Positions 3,424 to 55,904 of a DNA stretch of 64,000 bases are shown in pieces. Below the pieces are notes generated by a model. The model saw only the letters and a list, made by a program, of their open reading frames with translations. It had not been told where the DNA came from and made no database searches. The stretch is from Chloroflexota bacterium (GTDB taxonomy: Bacteria > Chloroflexota > Anaerolineae > Aggregatilineales > Phototrophicaceae): assembly GCA_028875245.1 (NCBI GenBank), contig JAPPEU010000057.1:37489-101488 (forward strand). The letters are read 5' to 3'. The first letter of the stretch is position 1, and each line of letters starts with the position of its first letter. The position numbers and the translations under genes are program-made.

Positions 3424-3498
3424 CAGCGACAGCTTCCGCGCGACCAATTTAGCAAAACAATGACTGAATGGCGAGCCATGCAATCGGCATCCGCTTGA
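3424..3498 (+). pseudogene. Relic of a second HNH/methyltransferase 3' end
   Basis: Downstream of the second Uma2 gene, one frame reads 'SKTMTEWRAMQSASA' then TGA. The methyltransferase-HNH protein ends in 'SKTMAEWRAAQAG' then a stop. The eleven-residue match in the same relative position at a 3' end suggests a decayed copy of the HNH tail, left by an old duplication of the methyltransferase-Uma2 unit. The surrounding 180 bp holds no other gene. Confidence 0.5.
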
Positions 3499-3530
3499 TG
3501 AATCGAATCGAGACACAAGGAGAACACACA

Positions 3531-5072: not shown

Positions 5073-5105
5073 TCATGCTCGCAGTAAACGCCGACATTAT
5101 CATTT

Positions 5106-5130
5106 GTAGGGGCGAGGCGGTGACTCGCCC
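5106..5130. repeat. GTAGGGGCG palindrome (REP-like) between hyuA-like gene and DUF917
   Basis: The 25-bp element GTAGGGGCGA...TCGCCC forms a stem GGGCGA/TCGCCC. It belongs to the dispersed family found in most gaps of this window and lies 22 bp upstream of the next start codon, so it could form a hairpin in the intercistronic mRNA. Confidence 0.75.
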
Positions 5131-5151
5131 GCAGCTCGTCGGAGGCTCGAC

Positions 5152-6231: not shown

Positions 6232-6237
6232 GCAATT

Positions 6238-8592: not shown

Positions 8593-8596
8593 GCCC

Positions 8597-9742
8597 ATGA
8601 ACCAAGTCACCCTCGACAACACCCTCCCCATCGCCATCGGCGCCGGGATCCTCGGCACGGGCGGCGGCGGCAGCACCTATCTCAACCGCCTCCGACTGAA
8701 CAACGAACTGAAGCAACGGGGCGGACCGGTCGCCATCATCCAGGCGGACGATGTGCCTGACGACGCGCTGGTCTGCGCCGTTGGCGGCATGGGCGCGCCG
8801 ACCGTCAGCAACGAAAAGCTGCAAGAAGGGCAGGAGATCAAGCGAGCCATCCGCGCCCTGGAGGAGCACCTGCGGCGGAAAATCTACGCCATCGTCATCG
8901 GCGAGATCGGCGGCGGCAACGCTCTCGGTCCCATGATCACAGCGCTGCAGTGCGATTTGCCGGTCGTGGATGGCGATGGCATGGGGCGCGCCTTTCCCGA
9001 GCTGGATATGGATACCTTCATGATCTATGGCGTGGCGCCGGCGCCTTTTGCCCTGGCCGATTCGCACGGCAATGTCGCTATTTTCCAGCGCATTGACTCG
9101 GCGAGGCAGGCGGAAGCCTTCGCGCGCAGCTTGACCATCGAGATGGGCGGCTCGGCGGCGCTCGTCATGCCGGTGATGACCGGCGTCGAATTGAAAGCGA
9201 CGCTCATCCGCGACACGCTCAGCCTGGCCAAGCGCATCGGCGACGCCGTCTTAAAATGTCGGGCGCGCAGCATGGAGCCGGCTGAAACCGTGGCGGCGCT
9301 CTGCAATGGAAAAGTCCTCTTCAGCGGCAAGATCATCGATGTCGAGCGGCGGACGGTGCAGGGTTTTGCCCGCGGCAAGCTCATCATCAGCGCGTTTACC
9401 TCGCAGCATCCCCCCAATGCATTGGGGATTCCGCCCTCCGTGAGGCGGGGGGACCGAGGGGGGAACTCGAGGGGGGTTCTCGAAATCGAGTTTCAAAACG
9501 AGAATCTGATAGCGCGGCGCAACGGGGCGATCGTCTGCGCGGTCCCCGACTTGATCACGCTGGTTACGCTCGATGAGGGCGAGCCGATCGGCACGGAGTC
9601 GCTGCGTTATGGCTTGCGCGTGGCGGTGCTGGCGCTGCCGGCGCCGAAAGAGCTGAAGACGCCGGCAGCGCTGGCGGTCGTCGGTCCGCGCGCCTTTGGC
9701 TATGATGTGGATTATGCGCCGCTGCCGGGGGATTTGTTGTAG
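8597..9742 (+). CDS. DUF917 family protein, copy 3, with an in-frame repeat insertion
   Basis: The roughly 381-residue protein shares 'GTGGGGSTYLN', 'VDGDGMGRAFPE' and 'FQNEN' with the other two copies but is more diverged. It has about 20 extra residues ('PPNALGIPPSVRRGDRGG') encoded by a C-rich/G-rich palindromic repeat at about 9408-9467. The ATG at 8597 is preferred because the upstream GTG (8585) lies inside the inverted repeat of the cassette. The extra loop precedes the conserved 'FQNE' strand, so the fold may survive. The stop codon lies in GTAGGGCGCC, resembling a REP edge. Confidence 0.75.
   Translation: MNQVTLDNTLPIAIGAGILGTGGGGSTYLNRLRLNNELKQRGGPVAIIQADDVPDDALVCAVGGMGAPTVSNEKLQEGQEIKRAIRALEEHLRRKIYAIVIGEIGGGNALGPMITALQCDLPVVDGDGMGRAFPELDMDTFMIYGVAPAPFALADSHGNVAIFQRIDSARQAEAFARSLTIEMGGSAALVMPVMTGVELKATLIRDTLSLAKRIGDAVLKCRARSMEPAETVAALCNGKVLFSGKIIDVERRTVQGFARGKLIISAFTSQHPPNALGIPPSVRRGDRGGNSRGVLEIEFQNENLIARRNGAIVCAVPDLITLVTLDEGEPIGTESLRYGLRVAVLALPAPKELKTPAALAVVGPRAFGYDVDYAPLPGDLL
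9408..9467. repeat. Palindromic repeat inserted in frame within DUF917 copy 3
   Basis: The segment contains the perfect palindrome CCCCAATGCATTGGGG followed by CCGCCCTCCGTGAGGCGGGG and a run of G-rich sequence. Copies 1 and 2 lack it, with 23 residues rather than 43 between 'GF' and 'FQNE'. About 60 bp were added with no frameshift or stop. Exact borders are uncertain by several bases. Confidence 0.65.
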
Positions 9743-41871: not shown

Positions 41872-43431
41872 ATGAAGACATGTCTGAAGATCGTTCTGAT
41901 GCTTGCCGTTCTGCTGATGGCCTTCGCGCCGGCCAGCGCCGATGTCACCTGGACGGGCGCCTTTGTGCTGGGCAGCTGCTGCGAGCCGAACTCGCTGGAC
42001 CCGGCCGCGATGGGTATCTCGCAGACCGAGGGCTATGTCATCACCGCGATGTACGAAGGGCTGACGCAGTATTCGCGCGCCGGGGAGATTGCGCCGCGGT
42101 TGGCGACCGGTTGGGAGATCTCCGATGACGCGCTGACCTATACACTGACGCTGCGCGAAGGCGTTCATTTCCACGACGGCTCACACCTGGATTCAGAAGA
42201 TGTCGTGGTATCGCTGGAACGCCACAAGGCGCTTGGCTTGGGCAATCTGGGTTTCATCCTGGCGCCGGTGGCGAGCGTCAACGCGCTGGATGACATGACC
42301 GTCCAGATTCAATTGAGCGCGGCCGATTTCCAATTCTGGGCCGGCTTGCCACATATCAAGATCCTCAGCGCCGACGCGATCGCCGCCAACGACATGGATG
42401 GCGACATGGCCGCTGAATTCTTCCGCGAGAACGCCGTCGGGACCGGGCCTTATCAACTGACGCGCTGGGACCCCGGCCGCCAAACGGAAATGTCCGCCTT
42501 CGCCGATTATTGGGGCGGCTGGGAAGGCCCGCATGTCGATACTTTCATCGCGCGCTACGGCCTTGATTTCTCGACGCGCCTGCTGCTGATGGAGGATGGC
42601 GAATTACATCTGATTGACTGGGCCGGCTTGTCCGATATCCGCCGCGCCGAAACTTCCGATGCCATCAACTACAACCTGGGCAATCCGCTGCAAGGCTTCT
42701 ACCACTTCATGAAGCAGGATGGCCCCCTGGCCGATAAGAAAGTACGCCAGGCGCTGATGCAGGCTTATCCCTACGAAGCGATGATTGAGGTGATGCAGGG
42801 GGTCGCCCTGCCACTGAGCTCGCCCGCGCTGAGCGGCACCGTCGGTCATTGCGATGTCTTCGAGCCGGCGCAGGATATGGACGCGGCGCGCGCCCTGCTG
42901 GCGGAATCGGATTACGCCGACGGCTTCTCACTGCGCCAGGCTTATCGCCATGCCAACGAACCTCGCCGATTCGCCGCCGTGCTCTTCCAGGAAGCGCTGG
43001 CCGAATTAAACATCGAGGTCGTATTGGACGACATCCCCTGGGGCACCTTCATCGACGCCCAGCGCAACTTCGATACCGCCTATGACATGACCAGCCACTG
43101 GCTCAACATCCCGATTCCCTATTCGGGCGAGATGCTCTTCCGGCTCAACCACTCGTCGCTGATCGATACCGGCACCGGCAACTGGGCTTGGTACAACAAT
43201 CCCGAGTTTGACGCCTTGCTGGAAGAAGCGCCGACGCTGGCGCCCGGCGATCCACGGATTGGCGAACTGCTCTGCCAGGCGCAGCAGATCCTCATCGATG
43301 ACGCCGTGGTCATTCCGGTGATGCTCTCGCAATACATCGATTTGACGCACGCGTCGGTCAGGGGATACCAGTACGATCCCTACGGCTTCCCGGGCGATCT
43401 GCACGTGCATGATATCTGGCTGGAAAATTAG
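41872..43431 (+). CDS. Peptide/nickel-type ABC transporter substrate-binding protein (family 5)
   Basis: The 519-residue protein has a signal peptide (residues 1 to about 23, ending 'APASA'), then 'SCCEPNSLDPAAMG' and 'YEGLTQYSRAGEIAPRLATGWEISDD', the signature region of SBP_bac_5 proteins that bind peptides, opines or glycosides. GGAAAGGA lies upstream of the ATG. It starts the transporter-hydantoinase gene group; its permeases are at 43668 and 49346. No lipobox is seen, so anchoring is uncertain. Confidence 0.85.
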   Translation: MKTCLKIVLMLAVLLMAFAPASADVTWTGAFVLGSCCEPNSLDPAAMGISQTEGYVITAMYEGLTQYSRAGEIAPRLATGWEISDDALTYTLTLREGVHFHDGSHLDSEDVVVSLERHKALGLGNLGFILAPVASVNALDDMTVQIQLSAADFQFWAGLPHIKILSADAIAANDMDGDMAAEFFRENAVGTGPYQLTRWDPGRQTEMSAFADYWGGWEGPHVDTFIARYGLDFSTRLLLMEDGELHLIDWAGLSDIRRAETSDAINYNLGNPLQGFYHFMKQDGPLADKKVRQALMQAYPYEAMIEVMQGVALPLSSPALSGTVGHCDVFEPAQDMDAARALLAESDYADGFSLRQAYRHANEPRRFAAVLFQEALAELNIEVVLDDIPWGTFIDAQRNFDTAYDMTSHWLNIPIPYSGEMLFRLNHSSLIDTGTGNWAWYNNPEFDALLEEAPTLAPGDPRIGELLCQAQQILIDDAVVIPVMLSQYIDLTHASVRGYQYDPYGFPGDLHVHDIWLEN

Positions 43432-43594
43432 CGCGGGCGCCAAACACAAAAGCGGAGCGCTTTAGCCCAGGCGCCTTGCGTTCCGCGTATCTAAGCAAGC
43501 GCATGTACGCTATGCAAATGAAAGCTGTATGGGCGTTTGACCTGCTGTGTCTACGCGCGGCGCCGAAACGCCCACAACATGTCACCGAATGAGC

Positions 43595-43619
43595 GGGCGT
43601 CTCAGCGAGACGCCCCTAC
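43595..43619. repeat. REP-like palindrome between the peptide-binding protein and its permease
   Basis: GGGCGTCTC-AGC-GAGACGCCC followed by CTAC: perfect 9-bp stem, 3-base loop. A looser GGGCGTTT...AAACGCCC pair lies just upstream (about 43530-43572). The 236-bp gap holds no gene. Confidence 0.75.
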
Positions 43620-43667
43620 AATGTTCCATATTTGTTGCGTTTCTTTGTCGGAGCTACTTATTTCTCG

Positions 43668-44675
43668 ATGGGCAAGCTACTCCTGGAACGCCTTCTGACG
43701 CTGGTTCTCAAGCTGTTCGGCATGGCGGTGATCCTGTTCGTGGTCACGCAAGTGTTGCCTGCCGATCCGGCAGCGGTGGCGGCCGGCACCGATGCCCGCC
43801 CGGAACAGATCGAGAGAATCCGGCAGGAGCTCGGCCTGGATCGTCCATTTCACGAGCAGTTCATCACTTATATTTCGGGCCTGCTGCGCGGTGATTTGGG
43901 CAAGTCGCTCTTGACGCGGCGCTCCGTCAGCGATGACCTGCGGCTGCGCTTCCCCGCGACTTTGGAACTGGCGATTCTGTCGGGCGTCGTCATCGTCATC
44001 TTCGGCGTCGGGCTGGGCATCATCGCGGCGGTCAACGCCGGCAATCCGCTGGACTTTTTGATTCGCGCCTTTGTCGTCGTCAGCATGGGGATACCGCCTT
44101 TTGTGCTGGCGCTGTTCTTGCAGCTGATCTTTGCCAAGTGGCTGGATATGTTTCCGCTCGAAGGGCGCCTGCACACGTTGATGGCGCCGCCTCCCTACAC
44201 GACCGGCCTGTATACCATCGACAGCCTGCTCGCCGGTCAGTGGGATATCTTCTGCTCGAGCCTGCGGCATCTGGCGTTGCCGGTGGCGGCTTTGGCTTTG
44301 GGGCGCCTGGCGGTTGGCGCGCGCTTCACACGGAGCGGCATGCTGGAAACCTTGTCGCAGCCTTATGTGCGGACGGCGCGGGCCAAAGGCTTGCGGGAGC
44401 GGCGCGTGATCTTGCGCCATGCCTTCCGCAACGCCCTGATACCGGTGGTGACGATGCTGGGCATTCAAATCGGCTTTCTGTTGAGCGGGGCTGTGCTGGT
44501 TGAGGTGGTTTTCACCTGGCCCGGGCTGGGGCGATACGCGGTGGATTCGGTCCTCTCTTTCGACTTTTACGCCGTGATCGGCGCCGCCCTCGTGATCGCG
44601 GTGATTTTTGTCGTTTCCAATACCGTCGTCGATCTGCTCTATGTGCAGCTGGATCCACGCATCAAACACAAATGA
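43668..44675 (+). CDS. Peptide-type ABC transporter permease (DppB-like)
   Basis: The 335-residue membrane protein begins 'LLLERLLTLVLKLFGMAVILFVVTQVLPADPAA', the DppB-type first helix. 'PFHEQFITYISGLLRGDLGKSL' and the permease loop 'ARAKGLRERRVILRHAFRNALIPVVTMLG' follow. ATG 43668 was chosen since homology starts here; the binding site GGAG is somewhat far. The partner permease DppC is not next to it but 4.7 kb downstream, after hyuA, racemase and hyuB. Confidence 0.8.
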   Translation: MGKLLLERLLTLVLKLFGMAVILFVVTQVLPADPAAVAAGTDARPEQIERIRQELGLDRPFHEQFITYISGLLRGDLGKSLLTRRSVSDDLRLRFPATLELAILSGVVIVIFGVGLGIIAAVNAGNPLDFLIRAFVVVSMGIPPFVLALFLQLIFAKWLDMFPLEGRLHTLMAPPPYTTGLYTIDSLLAGQWDIFCSSLRHLALPVAALALGRLAVGARFTRSGMLETLSQPYVRTARAKGLRERRVILRHAFRNALIPVVTMLGIQIGFLLSGAVLVEVVFTWPGLGRYAVDSVLSFDFYAVIGAALVIAVIFVVSNTVVDLLYVQLDPRIKHK

Positions 44676-44700
44676 CCGGACGGACGGGAAATCGCAACGC

Positions 44701-46782
44701 ATGAGTTTTGAGCTTGGCTTCGATATTGGCGGCACCTTCACCGATTTTGCGCTCGTGAACACTGAGAGCGGCGAACTTGCGGTTTTCAAAGCGTTGACCA
44801 CGCCGGAGCAGCCTGAGCTTGGCGCGCTGGACGGCCTGGCCGCCTTACTTTCCCAACGCGGATTAAGCCATCATCAATTGCTCAACATCTTCCATGGCAC
44901 GACATTAGTCGCCAACACGCTCATCGAGCATAAAGGCGCGCTGGTGGGCCTGCTGACCACGGCCGGTTTTCGCGATATCCTGGAGATGCGCAGCGAGCAG
45001 CGTTACGCCATATACGATCTCTTTCTGCAGTATCCGCCGCCGCTGAGCCCGCGCTACCTCCGGCGCGGAATCAAAGAGCGGGTCGACCGCGATGGCAACA
45101 TCCTCGAAGCTGTGTCTGAAGCGGATGTACGGCGAGCTGTGGCCGATTTTCAGCGGCAAGGCGTTGAGGCAATCGCCGTCGCCTGCCTGCATTCTTATCG
45201 CAATCCCGCCAACGAGCGGCGCATCGCCGAGCTGGTTCGGGCGCTGTGGCCCGCTGTCCCGGTGACCCTGTCCAGCGAAATCGCGCCGGAGATACGCGAA
45301 TACGAACGGAGCTCGACGACGGTCGCCAACGCTTACGCCTTGCCGCTGATGTCCTGTTATTTGCGGACGCTTGAAGAGCAACTGGCGTCGGCCGGTTTCG
45401 GCGGCAACTTCTATCTGATGCTATCATCGGGCAGTTCGGCGCTGGCGTCTGCGGCTCGCTCGCAGCCCATCCGACTGGTGGAATCGGGGCCCGCGGCCGG
45501 GGCGCTGGCCGCCGCTTATTTTGGCGGGTTGGCCGGCCATAAGGACCTGGTTTCATTTGACATGGGCGGGACGACGGCGAAAGTGGCGCTCGTCCACGAT
45601 GGACAGCCGGCGCGGGCATCCCAACTGGAAGTCGCCCGTGTGCATCGCTTCACAAAGGGCAGCGGCTATCCCTTGCAGTTTCCCACCGTCGATATTCTGG
45701 AGAGCGGCGCCGGTGGCGGCAGCATCGCCTGGGTGGACAAGCTCGGCTTGCTCAAGGTCGGGCCACAGAGCGCCGGCTCAGCCCCCGGCCCGGCCTGTTA
45801 TGGCTTCGGCGGCGCGCAGCCAACGGTGACCGATGCCGACCTGGTGCTGGGTTATTTGAACCCGGATTACTTCCTGGGCGGCGCGATGACGCTGGATATG
45901 GCCGCGTCCGAGCGGGCTTTGGCGCCAGTGGCCGAGGCCTTCGGCTGGACGATCGTCCAAACGGCCGCTGCCATTCATCAATTGGTGAATGAGAACATGG
46001 CGGCTGCCGCCCGCATTCACATCCTGGAAGCGGGGCGCGATCCGCGCAATTACGCCATGCTCTGCTTTGGCGGCGCTGGCCCGGCCCATGCCGCCGGCGT
46101 CGCGGAGATTCTGGGGCTCGCCGAAGTGATCGTCGCCCCTGGCGCGGGCGTCGCCTCCGCTATCGGCCTGCTCATCGCGCCGATCGCCTTCGATTTTTCG
46201 CATTCATACCCGACGCTGCTGGCGGCGGCCGATTGGCGCGCCGTCGCTGATCTCTTCGCCGAGATGGAAACGCGGGGGCGGGAGATGCTGCGGCCGGCCG
46301 GCATTGCCGAATCGGAGACCAGTATCGAACGCGGCGTTGACGGGCGCTTTCAAGGACAGCTGCACGAGATTCAAGTGCCGCTGCCGGCTGCGCTCAGCGC
46401 GATGGACGCCGAGGAATTCATCAGCCGGTTCAAAGCCCGCTATCGCGAACTTTATCATTACGTGCCGGCGCACACGCCCATCGAATTGCTGACCTGGCGC
46501 GTTCGTGTATCCGGCGCGCGAAGGCCCGTGAAACCGGCGCGACTGCCGGAAACCGACGCCGACCCGGGCCCGGCTTGCAAAGGCGAGCGCCGCGTTTATT
46601 TTCCCGAGCGCGCCGACTTCGTCATGGCGTCGGTCTTTGATCGCTACCGCCTCTGCGCCGGCATGAGTTTTCAGGGCCCGGCGGTCGTCGAAGAGCGCGA
46701 ATCGACGATCGTCCTGCCGCCGGGAATGCGGGCGACGGTGGATGCCTACGGCAATGTGCACTTGATTCGCGCGCGCGTTTAG
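44701..46782 (+). CDS. hyuA: Hydantoinase/5-oxoprolinase subunit A (HyuA), full length
   Basis: The 693-residue protein has 'ELGFDIGGTFTDFALVN' (ATP-binding loop), 'FHGTTLVANTLIEHKGA', 'SFDMGGTTAKVALV' and 'GPACYGFGGAQPTVTDADLVLGYLNP', all typical of HyuA of N-methylhydantoinase, 5-oxoprolinase or acetophenone carboxylase. It works with HyuB to open a lactam ring using ATP. ATG 44701 was chosen since the ORF-track start overlaps the permease. It is 25 bp after dppB-like and 21 bp before the racemase, so all are likely one operon. Which ring is opened is not known. Confidence 0.85.
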   Translation: MSFELGFDIGGTFTDFALVNTESGELAVFKALTTPEQPELGALDGLAALLSQRGLSHHQLLNIFHGTTLVANTLIEHKGALVGLLTTAGFRDILEMRSEQRYAIYDLFLQYPPPLSPRYLRRGIKERVDRDGNILEAVSEADVRRAVADFQRQGVEAIAVACLHSYRNPANERRIAELVRALWPAVPVTLSSEIAPEIREYERSSTTVANAYALPLMSCYLRTLEEQLASAGFGGNFYLMLSSGSSALASAARSQPIRLVESGPAAGALAAAYFGGLAGHKDLVSFDMGGTTAKVALVHDGQPARASQLEVARVHRFTKGSGYPLQFPTVDILESGAGGGSIAWVDKLGLLKVGPQSAGSAPGPACYGFGGAQPTVTDADLVLGYLNPDYFLGGAMTLDMAASERALAPVAEAFGWTIVQTAAAIHQLVNENMAAAARIHILEAGRDPRNYAMLCFGGAGPAHAAGVAEILGLAEVIVAPGAGVASAIGLLIAPIAFDFSHSYPTLLAAADWRAVADLFAEMETRGREMLRPAGIAESETSIERGVDGRFQGQLHEIQVPLPAALSAMDAEEFISRFKARYRELYHYVPAHTPIELLTWRVRVSGARRPVKPARLPETDADPGPACKGERRVYFPERADFVMASVFDRYRLCAGMSFQGPAVVEERESTIVLPPGMRATVDAYGNVHLIRARV

Positions 46783-46803
46783 ACCAAGTGGGAGACTGGC
46801 GAC

Positions 46804-47571
46804 ATGCGCATCTTGTGGATAGACCCCATCGTGGAGGACAAGCCCTATGTGAGCGCCTTGCGCGCCGCTCTGGGCGCTGCCCGGCGGCCGGAGACGGATG
46901 TGGAAATCAGCTCGCTGCCGGCGGGTCCAGCGCCGCGGCACCTGCGTTATCATGCCTATGAGGCGCTGGTCGTCGGCGAGATCGTCAAGACGGTCTATCG
47001 CCTGGCAGCGGATTATGACGCCTTTGTCATCGGCTGCTTTTATGACTTGGCCCTGCGAGAAGCGCGCGAGGTCTCCGGCAGAGCCATCGTCACCGCCCCC
47101 TGCGAAGCATCGATTGCGATAGCCAGCCAGTTGGGGAACAGCTTTTCGGTCCTGGTCGGCGCGAGCAAAGCGATCCCCAAAATGCGCGAGAATATCCGCG
47201 CTTACGGCTTCGAGCATCGCCTGAGGTCCATGCGACCGCTGGATATGGAGGTCTTGGAGTTTCAGTCGCAGGCGGAGCGCGCGCTGGAAGCGATGCTGCG
47301 CGAAGGAAAGAAAGCGGTGGAAGAGGATCAGGCCGAGGTCATCGTGCTCGGCTGCAGCGCTGAAGTCGGCTTTCATCGGACGCTGCAGGATGCGCTCGGC
47401 GTCCCCGTCATTGACTCGGCGCTGGCGCCCTTCAAATACGCCGAATTCCTGGCGGAGACGGCGAATCGCTTTGGCTGGCATCCGAGCCGCCGCTGGGGCA
47501 GCGAGCCGCCGCCGAAGCGTGAAATCGACGGTTGGCGTCTCTTCTCGGGGAAAGAATGCGATGATGGCTGA
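46804..47571 (+). CDS. Aspartate/glutamate/hydantoin racemase family protein
   Basis: The 255-residue protein has two catalytic Cys regions, 'FVIGCFYDLALREAR' and 'IVLGCSAEVGFHRTL', in the positions used by hydantoin and Asp/Glu racemases. The N-terminus 'RILWIDPIVEDKPY' also fits this family. It would interconvert D and L forms so that a stereospecific HyuA/HyuB can use both. It overlaps hyuB by 11 bp and lies directly after hyuA, which strongly supports a hydantoin- or oxoproline-type pathway. Confidence 0.8.
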   Translation: MRILWIDPIVEDKPYVSALRAALGAARRPETDVEISSLPAGPAPRHLRYHAYEALVVGEIVKTVYRLAADYDAFVIGCFYDLALREAREVSGRAIVTAPCEASIAIASQLGNSFSVLVGASKAIPKMRENIRAYGFEHRLRSMRPLDMEVLEFQSQAERALEAMLREGKKAVEEDQAEVIVLGCSAEVGFHRTLQDALGVPVIDSALAPFKYAEFLAETANRFGWHPSRRWGSEPPPKREIDGWRLFSGKECDDG

Positions 47572-49291
47572 AAATGCTCTGGACCCGCTCACATTGGAAA
47601 TCTTGTGGCAGCGGCTGATCACCGTCGCTGATCAAATGTCGACGACGCTGGCGCGGACGGCATTCTCCACCACCATCACCGCGTCGAACGACTACGGCTG
47701 CGTGCTGATTGACGCCGACGCCCAATGCGTCGCCCATGCGCATCGCAGCCTGCCGATCTTCAACCGCACCATGCCATACACGACCGCCATCGTCCTGGAG
47801 AAATTCGGCCGCGAGAATATCCGGCCCGGCGATGTCTTCATATCGAATGATCCCTGGGAGAACGCCGGCCACAACCCGGACATCACGGTGATCACGCCCT
47901 TTTTCAAAGCCGGCCTGCTGGTGGGTTTCGCCGCCAGCATCGCCCACCACGCCGATGTTGGTGGCGCGGTCGATACGAATCAAGTGCGCGACAGCTATGA
48001 AGAAGGGCTTCTCATACCGCTGGTTCAGCTTTATCGCGCCGGCGAGATCAACCAAACCGCGCTCGACTTTGTCGCCGCCAATGTGCGCCTGCCAACTGCG
48101 GTCATCGGCGATATTCATGCCCAGGTCGCCGCCAACCAGACCGGCGCGGAACGCTGCCTGGCGCTGCTGGATGAATACGGCCTGGACGATCTGCGGGCCA
48201 TCGCGGCGGAGATTCACAGTCGTTCGGAGAGGGCGATGCGCGCGGCAATCGCAGCCCTGCCCGATGGCGTCTATCGCTCCCGGGTCGTGGTCGATGAGTT
48301 GGACCAGCCATTGCAATTGCGTTGCCGGCTGGAAGTGCGCGCGGACGAGCTGTTTATCGACTTCAGCGGGACATCCCCCCAGCAGCCGCGCGGCGCGATC
48401 AACGTTACCTTCACCTTTACGCATGGTCAGATTTGCTACGCCTTAAAAGCGACCCTGCTGCCGGATGTGCCGGGCAATGATGGCTGCTACCGCCCGATCC
48501 AGGCCAGCGCCCCGCCGGGCTGCATCTTGAATGCGCAGCGCCCCGCCTCCGTCAGCCAGCGGCATCGCATCGGCGCGCATATCTTCGGCGCTGTGATTCA
48601 GGCCTTGGCGGAGGTGCTGCCGGACCGGGTGATCGCCGGCTCCGGCTTTCTCGTCAGTACGCGCGTCTTCGCCAATGCCTCCGCTGACGATGGCATCAGT
48701 CACTCGTATCTGTTCAGCGCGGGCGGCATGGGCGCCAGCTCGCGGAATAACGGGATCTCGACAGTGCAGGTGCCTGCTTTGGCGGGCGCGGTGCCGGTCG
48801 AGCTCTTCGAGATCGGCGTGCCAATCCTGACCCGCTGTCGCGAATTTGTGCCTGACACCGGCGGCGCCGGTCGGCAGCGCGGCGGTCTCGCCCAGCGCAT
48901 GGAGCTGGGCCTGCTGCCGGGGTTTGAGGGGCGGGCGACCGTGTCCGTGCATGCGGCCGGGCAGAATGTGCCGCCCTTCGGCTTATTTGGCGGGGAAGGC
49001 GGGTCGCCGGCCGAAATCCTGCGCGATGGCGCCGTCTTGAGCCGCGCCGAGAAAGTCCGTCATGCCAGCGCGCTGCCACTCGCCGATGCCGCTGCCACCG
49101 TCGGCTTCCAGACGGCAGCGGGCGGCGGCTATGGACCGCCAAGGGAACGGGCGCCGGAAACTGTGCAAGCGGACGCGCGCGACGGTCTGGTCTCGCTGGA
49201 GCGAGCGGCAGCGCTCTATGGCGTCGTGCTCGATCCGGAAACCTTGGAAATCGACCGGAACGCGACCGACGCCAAACGCAGAAGACTGTAG
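47561..49291 (+). CDS. hyuB: Hydantoinase/5-oxoprolinase subunit B (HyuB)
   Basis: The 576-residue protein has 'DPLTLEILWQRLITVADQMSTTLARTAFSTTI' at the start, 'ISNDPWENAGHNPDITVITPFF', 'HHADVGG' and 'YLFSAGGMGASS', which are conserved in HyuB. ATG 47561 (or 47564) follows GGGGAAAG. It is the partner of HyuA for ATP-dependent ring opening. Its stop TAG is part of the next REP element. Length and motifs are normal for the family. Confidence 0.85.
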   Translation: MMAENALDPLTLEILWQRLITVADQMSTTLARTAFSTTITASNDYGCVLIDADAQCVAHAHRSLPIFNRTMPYTTAIVLEKFGRENIRPGDVFISNDPWENAGHNPDITVITPFFKAGLLVGFAASIAHHADVGGAVDTNQVRDSYEEGLLIPLVQLYRAGEINQTALDFVAANVRLPTAVIGDIHAQVAANQTGAERCLALLDEYGLDDLRAIAAEIHSRSERAMRAAIAALPDGVYRSRVVVDELDQPLQLRCRLEVRADELFIDFSGTSPQQPRGAINVTFTFTHGQICYALKATLLPDVPGNDGCYRPIQASAPPGCILNAQRPASVSQRHRIGAHIFGAVIQALAEVLPDRVIAGSGFLVSTRVFANASADDGISHSYLFSAGGMGASSRNNGISTVQVPALAGAVPVELFEIGVPILTRCREFVPDTGGAGRQRGGLAQRMELGLLPGFEGRATVSVHAAGQNVPPFGLFGGEGGSPAEILRDGAVLSRAEKVRHASALPLADAAATVGFQTAAGGGYGPPRERAPETVQADARDGLVSLERAAALYGVVLDPETLEIDRNATDAKRRRL

Positions 49292-49312
49292 GGGCGCCTC
49301 GCTGAGACGCCC
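49288..49312. repeat. REP-like palindrome overlapping the hyuB stop codon
   Basis: GTAGGGGCGCCTCGCTGAGACGCCC supplies the hyuB TAG and separates hyuB from the second permease gene. Confidence 0.7.
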
Positions 49313-49345
49313 GCTTTGCCAACCACACTTACGAGCGGAGAAGCG

Positions 49346-50188
49346 GTGCATAGCGGTGCAAGCGGGATAAAGATATGGTACACACTGGGCCGGCGGAATC
49401 CCGGGCTGCTCGCCGGCTTCCTGCTGCTTTTGCCTTTCCTGCTATTTGCTGCCTTGCCGTCGCTGTTCTCCACGCATGATCCCATCAAGACATCGATTCG
49501 CGAGTTGTACCGCCCGCCCAGCCCGGACCACTTCTTCGGCACCGATGAATTGGGGCGGGATGTTTATAGCCGCGTGGTGTATGGCGCGCGCATTTCACTC
49601 GCTTCGGCCGCGCTGATTATCGGCATCGCCTGTTTGATTGGCATGCTGCTCGGGACCATTGCCGGTTACTGGGGCGGCTGGAGCGACCGGATCATCATGA
49701 CGCTGGTGGACCTGGTGCTGGCTTTCCCCAGCTTGATATTGGCGCTGGCGGTGAGCGCGGCGTTGGGGCCCGGGCTGCGCAGCGCCATCATCGCGGCGGC
49801 GGCCGTCTGGTGGCCGGTTTACGCGCGGCTGCTGCGCGGCATCACGCTGCAATTGGCGGAGATGGAATATGTCACCGCGGCGCGGGCGATGGGGGCGTCG
49901 GCGCCGGTGATCATTCGGCGGCATATCTTGCCCAACGCCGTCTACGCTATCATCGTGCGCATCAGCATTGACCTGGGTTTGGCGGTGCTGCTGCTGGCCA
50001 GCCTCAGTTTCATCGGCCTGGGCGCCAGCGCGCCAACGCCGGAGTGGGGGGCCATGGTGGCTTGGGGGCGGCTCTATTTCCTGACTGAGTGGTGGATCGG
50101 CGGCTTCCCGGCGCTCGCGGTCACGCTGGTGGTCGTGGGCATCACCATGCTGGGCGATGGCTTGAATGATCTGCGCGCGGTACGCTAG
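49346..50188 (+). CDS. Peptide-type ABC transporter permease (DppC-like)
   Basis: The 280-residue membrane protein has 'HFFGTDELGRDVYSRVVYGARISL', the strict DppC signature, and the loop 'TAARAMGASAPVIIRRHILPNA'. GTG 49346 was chosen with GGAG upstream; the ORF-track TTG at 49316 lies in repeat-adjacent sequence. It pairs with the DppB-like permease at 43668 and the binding protein at 41872. No DppD/DppF ATPases follow; the next gene is a peptidase. Confidence 0.85.
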   Translation: MHSGASGIKIWYTLGRRNPGLLAGFLLLLPFLLFAALPSLFSTHDPIKTSIRELYRPPSPDHFFGTDELGRDVYSRVVYGARISLASAALIIGIACLIGMLLGTIAGYWGGWSDRIIMTLVDLVLAFPSLILALAVSAALGPGLRSAIIAAAAVWWPVYARLLRGITLQLAEMEYVTAARAMGASAPVIIRRHILPNAVYAIIVRISIDLGLAVLLLASLSFIGLGASAPTPEWGAMVAWGRLYFLTEWWIGGFPALAVTLVVVGITMLGDGLNDLRAVR

Positions 50189-50201
50189 TTTGGCGGATAG
50201 A

Positions 50202-50261
50202 GGGCGAGCGACCGTCTCGCCCTTACGAAATCTTGGCGCTGAGAATAATAGCGAATAGGAT
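50202..50261. promoter_or_regulatory. REP-like palindrome and possible promoter before the M24 peptidase
   Basis: A palindrome at 50202-50226 is followed by TTGGCG (50233-50238), a 17-bp spacer and TAGGAT (50256-50261), which may drive the peptidase gene. Both boxes are imperfect. Confidence 0.3.
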
Positions 50262-50273
50262 TGACTTAACGAG

Positions 50274-51380
50274 ATGGACGCAAACGCTCGATATGACAAA
50301 TTGTACGCGCTAATGCGGGCGGCGGGGCTGGACGTGATCGCGCTGATACCGGGACCCAACCACCGCTATCTCACCGGCGCGGTTCACTACGTGTTGGAAC
50401 GCCCCATCGTCACCTTTTATACGCTCGGCCAGCCTCCGATCGCGGTCATTCCCGAGCTGGAAATCCCCCTGTTCGAGCGGCATGCGACGCCGGCGGAGTT
50501 GATTGCCTACAGCGACGCGGAGGGGTATGCCAGCGCCTTTCGTTCCGCGCTGGACCGGCTCGGCGCGCGCGGGAAGACCATCGGCGTCGAAGGCTTGCAC
50601 ATGCGCTTTTTCGAAGGCGAGATCATTCGGGCGAGCGCTCCCGAGGCAAAACTTGTCGATGCGACGGAACCCTTGGCGGAATTGCGAATCATCAAGGACG
50701 CCGGCGAGATCGCCTTGCTGCGGCGGGCAATCGACATTTCGGAGCGGGCTTTGCAGGCGATGTTCGACCAAGTGAAAGTCGGCATGAGCGAGATAGAAGC
50801 GGCGGCGATTTTGGAGGATCACATCAAGGGACTCGGCGGCGACGGGCTTTCCTTCGGCACGATACTCCATGCCGGCGACAATACGGCGCTGCCGCATTCA
50901 GGTCCGCTGGATTATCGCATTCAACATGGCGATCCGCTCATCGTCGATTTCGGCGCGACCTACAAGGGATACTGCGCCGATATCACGCGCACGGTTTTCA
51001 TCGGCGCGGTAAGCGATGAGCAGCGGGCTTTCTACGCCGTCGTGCAAGAGGCGAACGAAGCGGGCAGACGGGCGGCGCGCCCGGGCGTCAGCTGCGAGTC
51101 GGTGGATGTGGCGGCGCGGCAAGTCTTCATCGACGCCGGCTATGAACATCTGATTCGGCATCGAACGGGGCACGGCTTGGGCATGGAAGCGCACGAAGCG
51201 CCTTATATCGTGATTGGCAATAAGCAGATTCTGGAGCCGGGCATGGTCTTCACTATCGAGCCGGGCATCTATCGCATGGGTGAAATCGGCGTGCGCATCG
51301 AGGATAATATGCTGATAAGCGAAGACGGTGCTGAGAGCCTGACGACTTTCCCCCGCGACTTGCTTATCATTGAAGCCTGA
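50274..51380 (+). CDS. M24-family metallopeptidase (Xaa-Pro dipeptidase/aminopeptidase P-like)
   Basis: The 368-residue protein has an N-terminal creatinase-like domain (residues 1 to about 130) and a pita-bread catalytic domain. The metal ligands are in 'DFGATYKGYCADITRT' (two Asp), 'TGHGLGMEAHEAP' (His), 'TIEPGIY' (Glu) and 'GVRIEDN' (Glu). It removes N-terminal residues next to proline or splits creatine-like amidines. Its position after the peptide transporter and hyuAB genes suggests it processes an imported peptide or the ring-opening product. It is probably cytoplasmic. Confidence 0.85.
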   Translation: MDANARYDKLYALMRAAGLDVIALIPGPNHRYLTGAVHYVLERPIVTFYTLGQPPIAVIPELEIPLFERHATPAELIAYSDAEGYASAFRSALDRLGARGKTIGVEGLHMRFFEGEIIRASAPEAKLVDATEPLAELRIIKDAGEIALLRRAIDISERALQAMFDQVKVGMSEIEAAAILEDHIKGLGGDGLSFGTILHAGDNTALPHSGPLDYRIQHGDPLIVDFGATYKGYCADITRTVFIGAVSDEQRAFYAVVQEANEAGRRAARPGVSCESVDVAARQVFIDAGYEHLIRHRTGHGLGMEAHEAPYIVIGNKQILEPGMVFTIEPGIYRMGEIGVRIEDNMLISEDGAESLTTFPRDLLIIEA

Positions 51381-51457: not shown

Positions 51458-52282
51458 ATGAACACCGACTTAACAAAGGAACAGATCAATTTTTATCAAG
51501 AGAATGGCTACATCATCATTGAAAACTTTTTGTCGCCGGAAGAACTGGAGACTTGGCGGCAGCGCGTTGACGATGCGGTGGAGCGGCGCGGAAACCGCAA
51601 GCTGGCTGATAGGAGCGAAGTGGACGACGAGAGCGAAGAAGGCAAATATCGCCGCCTGCGCTTTGTACAGCGTCTCAATCTGTGGACCGACCACGCGGGC
51701 ATGCGCGAACTGATGCTTGACCCGCGTTTGGGCAAAATGGCGAGCGAGCTGGCGGGCGTCGATGGCATGCGCATCTGGCACGATCAAGCCTTGAACAAGC
51801 AGCCTTGGGCCAACCCGACCGGCTGGCACCTGGATAATCCCCTCTGGTCTTATTCCTCGCGCGACGCCCTCAGTATTTGGGTGGCGCTGGACGACGCCAC
51901 GCTGCAAAACGGCTGCCTATACTTCCTCCCCGGCGCGCACAAAACCGCCACATTCGACACTTCGAATATTGGCCCCAATATCAGCGATCTCTTCGATCTC
52001 TATCCACAGTGGGCGGAATTGGAGTCCGCCCCGGCGCCGATGAAGGCCGGGTCCTGCTCCTTCCACAACGGTCTGATGCCGCATGGAGCGGGCGCAAATA
52101 TGACGCCGGGCTGGCGGCGGGCGATGACCTGCGGCTATATGCCTGATGGCTCAACTTTTAATGGCATTCAGAATATCCTGCCGCAGGATGTTTTCGAGTC
52201 GCTGGAAATCGGTGATGTATTTGATGATGACAGCAGGAATCCGCTGATTTGGCATAAGACGAAGCCCTACGTGACCGCATGA
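51458..52282 (+). CDS. PhyH-family Fe(II)/2-oxoglutarate oxygenase
   Basis: The 274-residue protein has 'TKEQINFYQENGYIIIENFLSPEEL' at the start, 'TGWHLDNPLWSY' with the His-x-Asp pair, and a distal His in 'LMPHGAGANMTPGWRRAM' with following Arg. The iron and 2-oxoglutarate ligands are complete. It is on the same strand as, and 108 bp before, another PhyH gene. The substrate is unknown. Confidence 0.85.
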   Translation: MNTDLTKEQINFYQENGYIIIENFLSPEELETWRQRVDDAVERRGNRKLADRSEVDDESEEGKYRRLRFVQRLNLWTDHAGMRELMLDPRLGKMASELAGVDGMRIWHDQALNKQPWANPTGWHLDNPLWSYSSRDALSIWVALDDATLQNGCLYFLPGAHKTATFDTSNIGPNISDLFDLYPQWAELESAPAPMKAGSCSFHNGLMPHGAGANMTPGWRRAMTCGYMPDGSTFNGIQNILPQDVFESLEIGDVFDDDSRNPLIWHKTKPYVTA

Positions 52283-52322
52283 TCGCCAGACGAACACGCG
52301 AGCGACTGAGAGTCGACGGTAA

Positions 52323-52351
52323 TTCGCAATCTTCATAAAACGCGCTAAAAT
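52323..52351 (+). promoter_or_regulatory. Possible promoter before the second PhyH gene
   Basis: TTCGCA (52323-52328), a 17-bp spacer and TAAAAT (52346-52351) lie 38 bp before ATG 52390. The -10 is good and the -35 weak. Confidence 0.4.
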
Positions 52352-52389
52352 GTCCGCACAGACAAATTGTATTGAGTGAGAAACAGAAA

Positions 52390-53427
52390 ATGTCAGAATT
52401 GAAAGAACTGCGCGTCTCTAACGACGCTATGAACGAGCCGGAAGAGTTGCAGCGCCGGCTAGACGATGAGGGCTATCTCTTCTTCAAGCGGCTGGTGGCA
52501 CCCGACAAACTCTGGGAGCTGCGCCGTGAGATGATGAGCATGATCCAGCAGGTCGGCTGGCTGGTCGCGGGGACAGACCCGATGGACGGCATCGCCGATA
52601 TCAATATGCGCTATACCGAAGGCGACAACGAATACAGCGCCGGTTATGCCGAGGTTTACAAAATCGAGAACTTTCACCGTTCGGCGCACTGGCCGGAGTT
52701 TCTTGAGATTATCGAGAAAATGGTTGGGCAGCCGATCATGGCGCATCCGCAGAAGATCGCCCGTATATGGTTCCCCAAATACACCGAGCATACGACGCCC
52801 AAACATCAGGACTTCGTTCACTTCCAGGGCAGCTTCGACAATATCACCTGTTGGGCGCCGATCGGCGATTGCCCGGTTGAGCTGGGCGGCCTGGCGGTGA
52901 TTCCGAAATCACACAAGGTCAATCGCGTGCTTGACCATCACTTTTCGCTGGGCGCCGGCGGGCTGATTGTTCACGAAGACGAGCACGAAGAAATTAATCC
53001 CGTTTGGCACAGCACAAATTACGAAGCGGGCGACGCGCTCTTCTTCCCGGCGTTGACGATCCACCAGGCCCTGCCGAACTACACCGAAGACAAACTGCGC
53101 CTCTCGCTGGACAACCGTTATATGCTCGTGGGCGACAAAGTCGCGGAGCACATGCTGAAGCCGCATGATCCCAGCCAACTCACCTGGGACGACATTTACC
53201 CGCATTGGCAGCATGACGACCTGAAGTATTACTGGAAGCATTACGAAAATCCGGTTGTCGAGCGCGACCTGAGCTTTGGCGACAAGGCGCGAGTGGAAGT
53301 GATTGAATTGGCGCGCGAAGGCAACGAGCAGGCCATCTATGCCTTGACGCGCGGCGCCAAGAACAGTCCCGATACCGTAACGTCGGAAGTGTGGGCTGTT
53401 TTGGACGAGCTCGGCGTCGAGGTTTAG
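52390..53427 (+). CDS. PhyH-family Fe(II)/2-oxoglutarate oxygenase, longer form
   Basis: From ATG 52390 (TTG 52372 possible) the protein has 345 residues. It contains 'DEGYLFFKRLVAPDKLWELRREM', 'TPKHQDFVHFQG' with His-x-Asp, and a distal His in 'LTIHQALPNYTEDKLRLSLDNRY' with Arg nearby. A longer C-terminal tail, after about residue 280, is not common to the other copies. It is followed 44 bp downstream by two desaturase genes and may modify a related lipid, but this is inference from position. Confidence 0.8.
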   Translation: MSELKELRVSNDAMNEPEELQRRLDDEGYLFFKRLVAPDKLWELRREMMSMIQQVGWLVAGTDPMDGIADINMRYTEGDNEYSAGYAEVYKIENFHRSAHWPEFLEIIEKMVGQPIMAHPQKIARIWFPKYTEHTTPKHQDFVHFQGSFDNITCWAPIGDCPVELGGLAVIPKSHKVNRVLDHHFSLGAGGLIVHEDEHEEINPVWHSTNYEAGDALFFPALTIHQALPNYTEDKLRLSLDNRYMLVGDKVAEHMLKPHDPSQLTWDDIYPHWQHDDLKYYWKHYENPVVERDLSFGDKARVEVIELAREGNEQAIYALTRGAKNSPDTVTSEVWAVLDELGVEV

Positions 53428-53471
53428 TTAAGGCGCTCTTCCGGTCGGCAGATAATAGTGGGAGGGTCCCG

Positions 53472-54617
53472 ATGACGTACCCGGAATTGTCTGAAGTGCG
53501 CAAGACGCTGCGCGTCGATTGGTACCGCTGCAAGACGCGTCCCGGGTTGCTGCGTGAAATGTCTCGGCGCAGCGACGCGCAAGGTTGGTTTCAAGCCGGC
53601 GGGCACCTGGCGCTTTTCATCTTCACTGGCGCGCTTGTTTTCTACTTTTGGTCGCATGAACTCTGGCTGGCGATGCTGCTCGCGCTGTTTTGTCACGGCA
53701 CAGTGACCTCGTTCTTCCGCGGTATAGCGCCGCATGAGCTAGGGCATGGCACTGTTTTCAAGACGAAATGGCTCAACAAGGCTTTTTTGTACCTGTTCAG
53801 CTTGATCGGCTGGTGGGACCACTTTGATTACGCCAGCAGCCATACCTATCACCATCGCTACACCTTGCATCCGGAGGGAGACCGCGAGGTGCTGCTGCCG
53901 ATAGAGCCGTCGCTGGCTTCGACATTCATGCTGCAGATGTTCACTATCAATCTCTTGACGCCGCCCGGGCGCAGCATCCACCGCGGCGGATTGATCTCCA
54001 CGGTGATTATGACGGCGCTTGGCGCGGTCGGCCGCTTGCCACCGGACAAGGAATGGCTGCGGGCGCTTCATCTCGACCAGCCGGAGGAGCGTCAGAACTC
54101 GGTCCTGTGGTCGCGCGCGTTACTGCTTTTCCACGGATCGGTCCTGGTCATCGCTATCATCACCGGCTTGTGGGTTTTGCCGCTGATACTCTCGGTCTCA
54201 GTCTTCATCGGCAACGGGCTGGGCTATTTCGTCGGCTTGCCACAGCATTGCGGCTTGCGCGATCACACCAGCGACTTCCGCAAGAACACGCGCTCGATGA
54301 AGCTGAATCCGCTCTTCGACTTTCTATATTGGCGGATGGGCTGGCATATCGAGCATCACATGTTTGCCGGCGTGCCTTGCTACAACCTGGCGAAGATTCA
54401 TAAGGAAGTCGCCCATGACATGCCGGCGCCGCGCACACTGATCGGCGCCTGGAAAGAAATGCGCGAAACCTGGCGGCGGCAGAAGATTGATCCAGACTAC
54501 CAGTACGATACGCCCCTGCCGGCAACGGCGAAGCATGCCCGCGAAGATAGGCCCGAAAAGCAACTGGAAGGCTCAATCGGGGAGTTGGCGCCGGCTGGCT
54601 TGCAGGAGAGTCCCTAA
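53472..54617 (+). CDS. Membrane fatty-acid desaturase-type di-iron enzyme, copy 1
   Basis: The 381-residue protein has the three His boxes: 'HELGH' (residues 88-92), 'HTYHH' (124-128) and 'HIEHH' (near 292), between hydrophobic membrane segments. This is the pattern of the acyl desaturase/hydroxylase superfamily. GGAGGG lies upstream of ATG 53472. It introduces a double bond or hydroxyl into an acyl chain or other hydrophobic substrate; specificity is unknown. It is followed by a close paralogue. Confidence 0.85.
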   Translation: MTYPELSEVRKTLRVDWYRCKTRPGLLREMSRRSDAQGWFQAGGHLALFIFTGALVFYFWSHELWLAMLLALFCHGTVTSFFRGIAPHELGHGTVFKTKWLNKAFLYLFSLIGWWDHFDYASSHTYHHRYTLHPEGDREVLLPIEPSLASTFMLQMFTINLLTPPGRSIHRGGLISTVIMTALGAVGRLPPDKEWLRALHLDQPEERQNSVLWSRALLLFHGSVLVIAIITGLWVLPLILSVSVFIGNGLGYFVGLPQHCGLRDHTSDFRKNTRSMKLNPLFDFLYWRMGWHIEHHMFAGVPCYNLAKIHKEVAHDMPAPRTLIGAWKEMRETWRRQKIDPDYQYDTPLPATAKHAREDRPEKQLEGSIGELAPAGLQESP

Positions 54618-54743
54618 GGTTTACCGCGGAAGCCGAGTGACGGCAATCAGTTTACGTGTTGTAAGGAATCCGTAACCGGTCACTCGCGCCTTCAATTTGG
54701 CGGTGCTTCCGCGTCCAAATCTTGGAGGAACAGGAGGCGAGCC

Positions 54744-55904
54744 ATGACCTATCAAACACTGTCCGAAGTGCGCAAGACGCTGCGCGTCGATTGGTATCGC
54801 TGTCCGACGCGGCCCGGTTTGCTGCGCGAACTCTCCAGGCGCAGCGACGCCCAGGGCTGGTTCCAGGCGGGCGGCCACCTCGCCCTGATGATCCTCACCG
54901 GTTCCCTCGCCTTCCACTTTTGGTCGCGGGAGCTGTGGCTGGCTTTTCTGCTGGCTTTATTTTGTCACGGCACTGTGACTGCATTCTGCCGGGGCAACAG
55001 CACACATGAACTCGGGCATGGCACGGTCTTCAAGACCAAATGGCTGAACAAGGTCTTTCTCTATCTGTTCAGCTTGATCGGCTGGTGGGATCCTTTCGAT
55101 TACGCCAGCAGCCATACCTACCATCATCGTTATACCCTGCACCCGGAAGGCGACCGGGAGGTGCTGCTGCCCATCGAACCGTCGCTGGCCTCAGCCTTCA
55201 TGCTGCAGCTGTTCACGGTCAACTTGCTGACGCAGCCGGGCCGCATCTTCGGCAAGGGCGGCTTGATTTCCACTGTGCTGCTCACCTTCATGGGCGCATT
55301 CGGGCGTGACCCCGCCGCGGAAAAGGCGCCCGCCAACGAATGGCTGCGGACCTTGCACAGCGACCAGCCGCAAGAGCATCGCAACTCGATTCTTTGGTCG
55401 CGCGTCCTTCTGCTCTTTCATGGCTCGGTCTTGGTCATCGCCATCTTGAGCGGGCTGTGGGTGCTGCCGCTGCTCTTCACCACAGCCGTTTTCAGCGCCA
55501 ATTTGCTGCAGTATCTGGTGAACTTGCCCCAGCATTGCGGCTTGCGCGACCACAGCACTGACTTTCGCAAGAATACGCGCTCGATCAAACTGAACCCGCT
55601 CTTCGATTTTCTATACTGGCGCATGGGCTGGCATATAGAACATCACATGTTCGCCGGTGTGCCCTGCTACAACCTGGCCAAGCTGCATCGAGAAGTTGCC
55701 CATGATATGCCGGAGCCGCGCACGCTGGTCGGCGCCTGGAAGGAAATGCGCGCCGTCTGGCGGCGGCAGAAGGCGGATCCGGATTACCAGTTCGATACCC
55801 CGCTTCCAGCTACAGCCAAGCAAGCCCGTGAAGATGCGCCGGATGATCGGCTTGAAAGCTCCATCGGCGAGTTGGCGCCGGCGGGATTAAAAGAGCGCGC
55901 TTGA
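54744..55904 (+). CDS. Membrane fatty-acid desaturase-type di-iron enzyme, copy 2
   Basis: The 386-residue protein keeps the same His boxes ('HELGH', 'HTYHH', 'HIEHH') and is similar to copy 1 along nearly all its length, with a short insertion after 'MGAFGRDPAAEKAPAN'. GGAGG lies upstream of the ATG. The pair comes from a tandem duplication and probably has related but not necessarily identical substrates. No desaturase electron donor (ferredoxin or its reductase) is nearby. Confidence 0.85.
   Translation: MTYQTLSEVRKTLRVDWYRCPTRPGLLRELSRRSDAQGWFQAGGHLALMILTGSLAFHFWSRELWLAFLLALFCHGTVTAFCRGNSTHELGHGTVFKTKWLNKVFLYLFSLIGWWDPFDYASSHTYHHRYTLHPEGDREVLLPIEPSLASAFMLQLFTVNLLTQPGRIFGKGGLISTVLLTFMGAFGRDPAAEKAPANEWLRTLHSDQPQEHRNSILWSRVLLLFHGSVLVIAILSGLWVLPLLFTTAVFSANLLQYLVNLPQHCGLRDHSTDFRKNTRSIKLNPLFDFLYWRMGWHIEHHMFAGVPCYNLAKLHREVAHDMPEPRTLVGAWKEMRAVWRRQKADPDYQFDTPLPATAKQAREDAPDDRLESSIGELAPAGLKERA

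What the first reader, a model, noticed from the sequence alone, without database searches (positions are those of the whole stretch)
41872..51380. Peptide-type importer genes interleaved with hydantoinase genes
The order is binding protein, DppB, HyuA, racemase, HyuB, DppC, M24 peptidase. Splitting the two permease genes by an enzyme set is unusual and ties transport to ring-opening. The simplest reading is a dedicated uptake and breakdown route for a cyclic dipeptide-like, hydantoin or oxoproline compound, with racemase for both enantiomers and a peptidase for the opened product.
Basis: partly seen in the sequence, partly recalled or inferred. Interest (0 to 1): 0.65.

Follow-up and report, generated by a model that had tools for sequence, protein, structure and literature searches.

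The report
Cyclic-amide uptake and ring-opening gene cluster
A bacterium, probably a sponge symbiont, carries a conserved block of seven genes that look able to import a small ring-shaped amide, split the ring with ATP and trim the product; similar gene sets occur in distant microbes, so this is an unusual arrangement of a widespread but poorly understood pathway.

Summary
In detail: SBP5 binding protein, DppB, HyuA, racemase, HyuB, DppC and M24 peptidase are intact, co-directional and close-packed. The block is not an accident of one genome. All 34 held genomes of the genus were searched: 19 carry it, always in this order where contigs allow, and the other 15 have neither HyuA nor DppC ortholog. 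It keeps its order in two different flanking contexts. The split of dppB and dppC looks derived: 55 homologous HyuA loci elsewhere in the phylum show none, while canonical dppABCDF-hyuAB operons, some with racemase and M24, do occur. The same functional set also recurs in Alpha- and Betaproteobacteria and Thermus, and partly in Bacillota and haloarchaea. SBP, DppB and DppC each fall with importers encoded beside hyu genes. HyuAB have the motifs of ATP-dependent lactamases, not carboxylases. The binding protein appears to have lost the Asp that holds a dipeptide's amino end, which disfavours linear peptides. The substrate (proline diketopiperazine, 5-substituted hydantoin or lactam acid) remains open. 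A new variant of a known kind.

The parts
41872..43431 (+). SBP family 5 (DppA/OppA-type) extracellular solute-binding protein, 519 aa, signal peptide-like N terminus
   Evidence: Pfam PF00496, 228 bits; AF2 pLDDT 86.7, Foldseek top hits are family 5 SBPs; 80-97% identical in 17 orthologs
43595..43615 (.). dispersed palindrome in the SBP-DppB gap; probably REP-like insertion, not a functional part
   Evidence: about 125 copies in the genome, control 0; position not conserved in orthologs
43668..44675 (+). DppB-type permease, intact EAA coupling loop (RAKGL...HAFRNALIP)
   Evidence: PF00528/PF19300, motif kept in 19 sequences; tree with hyu-linked importers, SH-aLRT 94
44701..46782 (+). HyuA: ATP-binding subunit of an ATP-dependent cyclic amidase, 693 aa
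   Evidence: PF05378, PF01968, PF19278; best NCBIfam CapA 551 bits, below cut-off; DIGGTFTD, DMGGT and GSxPGP motifs kept in 18 sequences
46804..47571 (+). Asp/Glu/hydantoin-type racemase with both catalytic Cys motifs (GCFYD, LGCSAEVG)
   Evidence: PF01177 96 bits; aligned with hydantoin and allantoin racemases of the PDB; Cys kept in 18 sequences
47564..49291 (+). HyuB: metal-binding hydrolytic subunit, 575 aa; ligand set D43, H103, D106, H128
   Evidence: PF02538 479.5 bits; motifs kept in 18 sequences, correspond to CapB D41/H99/D102/H124 (PMC8453981)
49292..49312 (.). second copy of the dispersed palindrome, between HyuB and DppC
   Evidence: not conserved in position
49316..50188 (+). 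DppC-type permease (start TTG 49316 or GTG 49346)
   Evidence: PF00528; tree with hyu-linked importers, SH-aLRT 97; ortholog only in genomes that have the HyuA ortholog
50274..51380 (+). M24 metallopeptidase, Xaa-Pro peptidase-like, all five metal ligands present
   Evidence: PF00557 231 bits; nearest PDB entries are Xaa-Pro peptidases; D, D, H, E, E kept in 17 sequences

Best explanation
The block is a catabolic unit for a small cyclic amide. Inferred steps: the family 5 binding protein captures a ligand that has no free amino terminus; DppB-DppC carry it in, powered by DppD/F-type ATPases shared with other importers of the genome (no ATPase gene is in the unit). The racemase interconverts the enantiomers at the carbon next to the ring carbonyl. 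HyuA activates the ring amide with ATP, and the metal site of HyuB hydrolyses it. The M24 peptidase then cleaves the opened, dipeptide-like product. Shown here: gene content, order, intact catalytic motifs, all-or-none inheritance in the genus, and recurrence of the set elsewhere. Inferred: transport direction, ATPase sharing, order of enzyme steps and substrate. My ranking of substrates: proline-containing cyclic dipeptide and 5-substituted hydantoin about equal, lactam acid such as 5-oxoproline or an opine lactam next.
For: All-or-none presence: HyuA ortholog (74-92%) in 19 of 34 genus genomes, DppC ortholog (82-100%) in 18 of those 19 and in no other, the exception being a contig end inside HyuA. 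Same seven-gene order in two flanking contexts. SBP, DppB and DppC each group with hyu-linked importers, SH-aLRT 95, 94 and 97, apart from more than 20 other importers of the same genome. Catalytic motifs of HyuA, HyuB, racemase and M24 intact in all orthologs. Same set in other orders: Ketogulonicigenium, Thermus, Roseateles, class member L182, and without the racemase L176. In Parageobacillus racemase-HyuAB-M24 runs on into pruA and proline dehydrogenase. Apparent loss of the DppA Asp408 equivalent, Arg355 kept (roles in PMC3295651, and the R383D+D436R mutant entry 8z1z). Many importers of this genome lack linked ATPases.
Against: No substrate evidence of any kind. The Asp408 column shifts in a larger alignment, so that point is weak. 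A kept Arg suggests a carboxylate, which a plain cyclic dipeptide lacks. HyuC-type carbamoylases exist elsewhere in every genus genome, so a hydantoin route without M24 is possible. M24 homologs also occur in importer operons without hyuAB and apart from both. The M24 of this unit is not in the same branch as most other cluster M24s. No single ATPase set could be named: the closest candidate is absent from two carriers.
Confidence: 0.62

Rival explanations
1. A classical hydantoin route: importer, racemase and HyuAB turn 5-substituted hydantoins into N-carbamoyl amino acids, which HyuC-type carbamoylases encoded elsewhere in the genome finish; M24 is incidental or trims peptides.
For: HyuA-HyuB-racemase recalls the hyuABCE set of Pseudomonas sp. 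NS671 (own knowledge). Three HyuC-type genes over the TIGR01879 cut-off in this genome, and such genes in all 34 genus genomes. Racemase resembles hydantoin and allantoin racemases.
Against: HyuC is not in the unit and does not vary with it. M24 recurs next to HyuAB and racemase in several phyla, which an incidental gene would not.
Confidence: 0.22
2. HyuAB here is an ATP-dependent carboxylase of the acetone or acetophenone type, as a sponge-symbiont study labelled hyuA (PMC8941161).
For: Shared fold and motifs; PDB matches include these carboxylases.
Against: The caprolactamase profile beats the acetophenone carboxylase profiles (551 against 340 and 208 bits for HyuA; 225 against 104 for HyuB). 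No further carboxylase subunit gene in the unit. A racemase, a peptidase and a peptide-type importer would not fit a ketone.
Confidence: 0.04
3. The order is a by-product of rearrangement: a linear-peptide importer was broken up by an unrelated enzyme set and kept by drift.
For: The split is unique to this genus among loci examined, and the ATPases are gone, as one might expect of a degrading importer.
Against: All genes intact, binding protein 91% identical per column across the genus, order kept in two contexts, all-or-none inheritance, and pairing of the same importer clade with two HyuAB lineages.
Confidence: 0.08

Closest known systems
ATP-dependent lactamase family (caprolactamase CapAB, 5-oxoprolinase, N-methylhydantoinase, hydantoinase HyuAB)
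   Same: Pfam domains, both ATP phosphate motifs and the adenosine motif in HyuA, metal ligand set in HyuB (PMC8453981)
   Different: Below the curated cut-offs of CapA and CapB; no adjacent Cys pair in HyuB, the feature PMC8453981 reports in CapB and a P. putida lactamase
hyuABCE hydantoin operon of Pseudomonas sp. NS671 (own knowledge)
   Same: HyuA, HyuB and a hydantoin-type racemase together
   Different: No HyuC in the unit; instead an M24 peptidase and a peptide-type importer
Dpp-linked hyu clusters of other bacteria: Ketogulonicigenium L238, Thermus L239/L243, Roseateles L244, Chloroflexota L176, L179, L182, L183
   Same: SBP5, two permeases, HyuA, HyuB, with racemase and/or M24
   Different: Permease genes adjacent and followed by both ATPases; in the window they are split and the ATPases are missing
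Own-genome cluster on contig C88 (L055)
   Same: SBP-DppB-DppC importer of the same clade beside HyuAB
   Different: Canonical order with DppD and DppF, no racemase or M24; HyuAB of another lineage
Agropinic-acid binding protein AgaA (PDB 6hlx) and its opine catabolic operon
   Same: A family 5 binding protein for a lactam opine is among the nearest structures; I recall HyuAB-like genes in that operon (own knowledge, not tested)
   Different: About 24% identity; plasmid not fetched

Membership tests
ATP-dependent lactamase/hydantoinase/oxoprolinase family | HyuA with DxGGTxTD, DxGGT and GxxPGP motifs | tested here: met
   DIGGTFTD, DMGGT, GSxPGP in all 18 sequences; motif definition in PMC8453981
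ATP-dependent lactamase/hydantoinase/oxoprolinase family | HyuB with Asp-His-Asp-His metal ligands | tested here: met
   D43, H103, D106, H128, spacing close to that of CapB
ATP-dependent lactamase/hydantoinase/oxoprolinase family | ATP-dependent hydrolysis of a cyclic amide | not testable with these tools
   needs purified protein
Caprolactamase CapAB (equivalog) | score over the curated cut-off (1000 bits each) | tested here: not met
   551 and 225 bits
Caprolactamase CapAB (equivalog) | adjacent Cys pair in CapB | tested here: not met
   no CC in HyuB
Acetone/acetophenone carboxylase | carboxylase profile over cut-off and further subunit genes | tested here: not met
   340 and 208 bits against cut-offs 1500 and 1250; no other subunit gene in the unit
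Complete peptide/nickel (Dpp/Opp) ABC importer | binding protein and two permeases with EAA loops | tested here: met
Complete peptide/nickel (Dpp/Opp) ABC importer | linked ATPase genes DppD and DppF | tested here: not met
   none in the window or beside orthologs; candidates in trans exist
DppA-type dipeptide-binding protein | Asp408 for the peptide amino end and Arg355 for the carboxylate | tested here: inconclusive
   Asn412 and Arg359 in two alignments, Asp column shifted in a third
Hydantoin/Asp-Glu racemase | two catalytic Cys motifs | tested here: met
   GCFYD and LGCSAEVG in 18 sequences
M24 Xaa-Pro peptidase | five metal ligands D, D, H, E, E | tested here: met
M24 Xaa-Pro peptidase | curated equivalog cut-off of a named peptidase | tested here: not met
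   best 198 bits against 393 (aminopeptidase), 190 against 630 (PepQ)
hyuABCE hydantoin operon | HyuC carbamoylase in the operon | tested here: not met
   absent from the unit; present elsewhere in the genome

The most novel reading that the evidence does not exclude
The module is a widespread, undescribed route for cyclic dipeptides, above all proline diketopiperazines: importer or other carrier, racemase, ATP-dependent ring opening by HyuAB and Xaa-Pro cleavage by M24, feeding proline dehydrogenase. It would be the first ATP-dependent cyclic dipeptidase I know of and would explain part of the unexplained enrichment of hyuAB in sponge symbionts.
Probability: 0.2. Interest if true: 0.62.

Novelty: new variant of a known kind. 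Interest (0 to 1): 0.42.

Why it matters
hyuA and hyuB are reported as enriched in sponge symbionts without a known role (PMC5649159) and hyuA has been labelled an acetone carboxylase subunit in another sponge study (PMC8941161). This unit, in Chloroflexota whose relatives come from MAGs with sponge-like isolate codes, ties one HyuAB lineage to a peptide-type importer, a racemase and a peptidase. It turns a vague annotation into a testable uptake and ring-opening pathway, with cultivated carriers of the same or a similar set (Thermus, Parageobacillus, Ketogulonicigenium) in which to find the substrate.

Tried and rejected
Literature: no open paper found for the combination of hydantoinase, dipeptide ABC transporter, racemase and gene cluster, nor for HyuAB acting on cyclic dipeptides (one search gave only a caprolactam paper); nothing on OpaE or thiohydantoin desulfurase clusters. 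Carboxylase reading rejected on profile scores. PhyH, desaturase and GH32 genes rejected as members because six ortholog loci lack them. Idea that the DppD of C62:33 kb is the dedicated ATPase: rejected as the only source, since carriers G019 and G031 have no ortholog. Idea that the two palindromes mark a cut-and-paste event: rejected, about 125 copies genome-wide and position not conserved. In the M24 tree the rows L249 and L253 have branch lengths over 9, probably mis-read ORFs, and are ignored. The genome-contig scan returned only the close orthologs.

Full report
Observation. Starts were refined with orthologs and codon context: DppB begins at ATG 43668, HyuA at ATG 44701, HyuB at 47564 inside the end of the racemase, DppC at 49316 or 49346. 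Gaps from DppB to M24 run from an 8-base overlap to about 85 bases, so one transcript is likely but not shown; the promoter and terminator scans found about as many sites as shuffled sequence.

Is it more than one genome's accident? The window lies in a 4.2 Mb draft genome. All 34 held genomes of its genus were searched. A HyuA ortholog of 74-92% identity occurs in 19 of them, the window's own included; the next homolog is at 47%. In the 18 other carriers the order SBP-DppB-HyuA-racemase-HyuB-DppC-M24 is identical wherever the contig reaches. A search with DppC gave orthologs of 82-100% in 18 genomes, all of them HyuA carriers; the nineteenth carrier, G020, is cut inside HyuA by a contig end. 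The remaining 15 genomes have neither. Flanks differ: 11 of the 18 ortholog loci have GH32 or sugar-phosphate genes upstream and/or PhyH genes downstream, six have neither, and one is too short to tell. So the seven genes are the inherited unit. Named relatives are Chloroflexota or Anaerolineae MAGs with isolate codes such as COS, RHO and APA; these codes fit the sponges Coscinoderma, Rhopaloeides and Aplysina of PMC8163846, which is my inference.

Enzymes. HyuA and HyuB have all motifs that PMC8453981 lists for ATP-dependent lactamases, in every ortholog. Of the named NCBIfam families the caprolactamase subunits score best, but at about half or less of the cut-off, and clearly above acetophenone carboxylase. 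The racemase keeps both Cys motifs of hydantoin and allantoin racemases. The M24 protein keeps all five metal ligands and is nearest to Xaa-Pro peptidases.

Importer. Binding protein and both permeases are intact, with EAA coupling loops, but there is no ATPase in the whole window or beside any ortholog, apart from an unrelated fragment in L051. In this genome many SBP-DppB-DppC sets lack ATPases, while 36 oligo_HPY matches exist elsewhere, so sharing is likely. Trees of SBP, DppB and DppC place each window gene with importers that lie beside hyu genes, with SH-aLRT 95, 94 and 97. The one other own-genome importer in that group apart from C88 is L192, which lies a few kilobases before a HyuA-like gene and three S-methyl-thiohydantoin-desulfurase-like genes at window 3468-9742. 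HyuA and HyuB trees show that the window pair is nearest to L144/L145, where the HyuAB genes follow a canonical importer or its ATPases, and to three unlinked loci, and far from the HyuAB of L175-L183 and C88. The same importer clade has therefore been paired with at least two HyuAB lineages.

Split order. Among 55 HyuA-homolog loci outside the genus, 12 have DppB or DppC nearby, about eight in same-strand operons, and none is split. The split, and the loss of ATPases, look derived in this genus. The sampling was drawn from the phylum and from plasmids, so other cases may exist.

Other phyla. Plasmid records gave the same set in other orders: Ketogulonicigenium, cupin-HyuA-HyuB-M24-SBP-racemase-permease-permease-ATPase-ATPase; Thermus, racemase-SBP-permeases-ATPases-M24-HyuA-HyuB-HyuB; Roseateles, SBP-permeases-ATPases-GAF-HyuA-HyuB-racemase-M24; the haloarchaeon Natrononativus without M24; Novosphingobium and Parageobacillus with TonB receptor or MFS genes instead of the ABC importer. 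Eight annotated racemase relatives were examined, chosen from the best hits: all eight have a HyuA-type gene nearby, five an M24 gene, four a full peptide-type importer. Starting from M24, only one of six lay beside HyuAB and one inside an importer operon. The M24 of this unit does not group with the other cluster M24s, which suggests repeated recruitment; that tree is weakly resolved.

Substrate. In Parageobacillus the run racemase-MFS-XRE-HyuA-HyuB-cupin-M24 continues into pruA and proline dehydrogenase, which points to a proline-containing product and so to an opened proline diketopiperazine or similar. The binding protein appears to carry Asn for the DppA Asp408 that holds the peptide amino end, with Arg355 kept. 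PMC3295651 reports that relatives with D408R did not bind dipeptides, and PDB 8z1z is a DppA R383D+D436R mutant, the same two residues in precursor numbering. This speaks against linear peptides and for a ligand without a free amine, perhaps with a carboxylate. The alignment is gap-sensitive there. HyuC-type carbamoylases in every genus genome leave a hydantoin route open. I cannot decide between these.

Judgement. It is a lineage-specific arrangement of a gene set that recurs across phyla. I found no description of that set in the open literature searched, but the enzyme and importer families are known, hence a new variant of a known kind.

Noticed in passing
window 3468-9742, and G000:C62:28-35 kb (L192): HyuA-like gene followed by three S-methyl-thiohydantoin-desulfurase-like (DUF917) genes; a full Dpp importer of the hyu-linked clade lies a few kilobases upstream. 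Looks like a second cyclic-amide or thiohydantoin route.
   Followed up: partly
window 43595-43615, 49292-49312, 6640, 37927, 55992, 56034: Dispersed palindrome GGGCGTCTC-NN-CGAGACGCCC, about 125 copies in the genome against 0 for the control; the copies in this unit lie in intergenic gaps, REP-like.
   Followed up: partly
L054 (G000:C65:11800-29700): HyuA and HyuB beside an N-methyl-amino-acid oxidase (N-methyltryptophan oxidase model, over cut-off) and an SDR: possible N-methylhydantoin route.
   Followed up: partly
L055 (G000:C88:6200-24000): Canonical SBP-DppB-DppC-DppD-DppF-HyuA-HyuB cluster in the same genome, also seen in other species of the genus (L061, L062).
   Followed up: partly
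G000, loci L185-L215: Many SBP-DppB-DppC sets without ATPase genes and some stand-alone ATPase pairs: ATPase sharing may be general in this lineage.
   Followed up: partly
window 51458-55904: Two PhyH-family dioxygenases and a tandem pair of fatty-acid desaturases downstream of the unit; PhyH copy number varies among carriers.
   Followed up: no
window 570-2147: DNA methylase domain followed by an HNH endonuclease domain in one reading frame.
   Followed up: no
L261 (Ruegeria plasmid): M24 peptidase gene inserted between the binding protein and permease genes of a Dpp-type operon without hyuAB.
   Followed up: no
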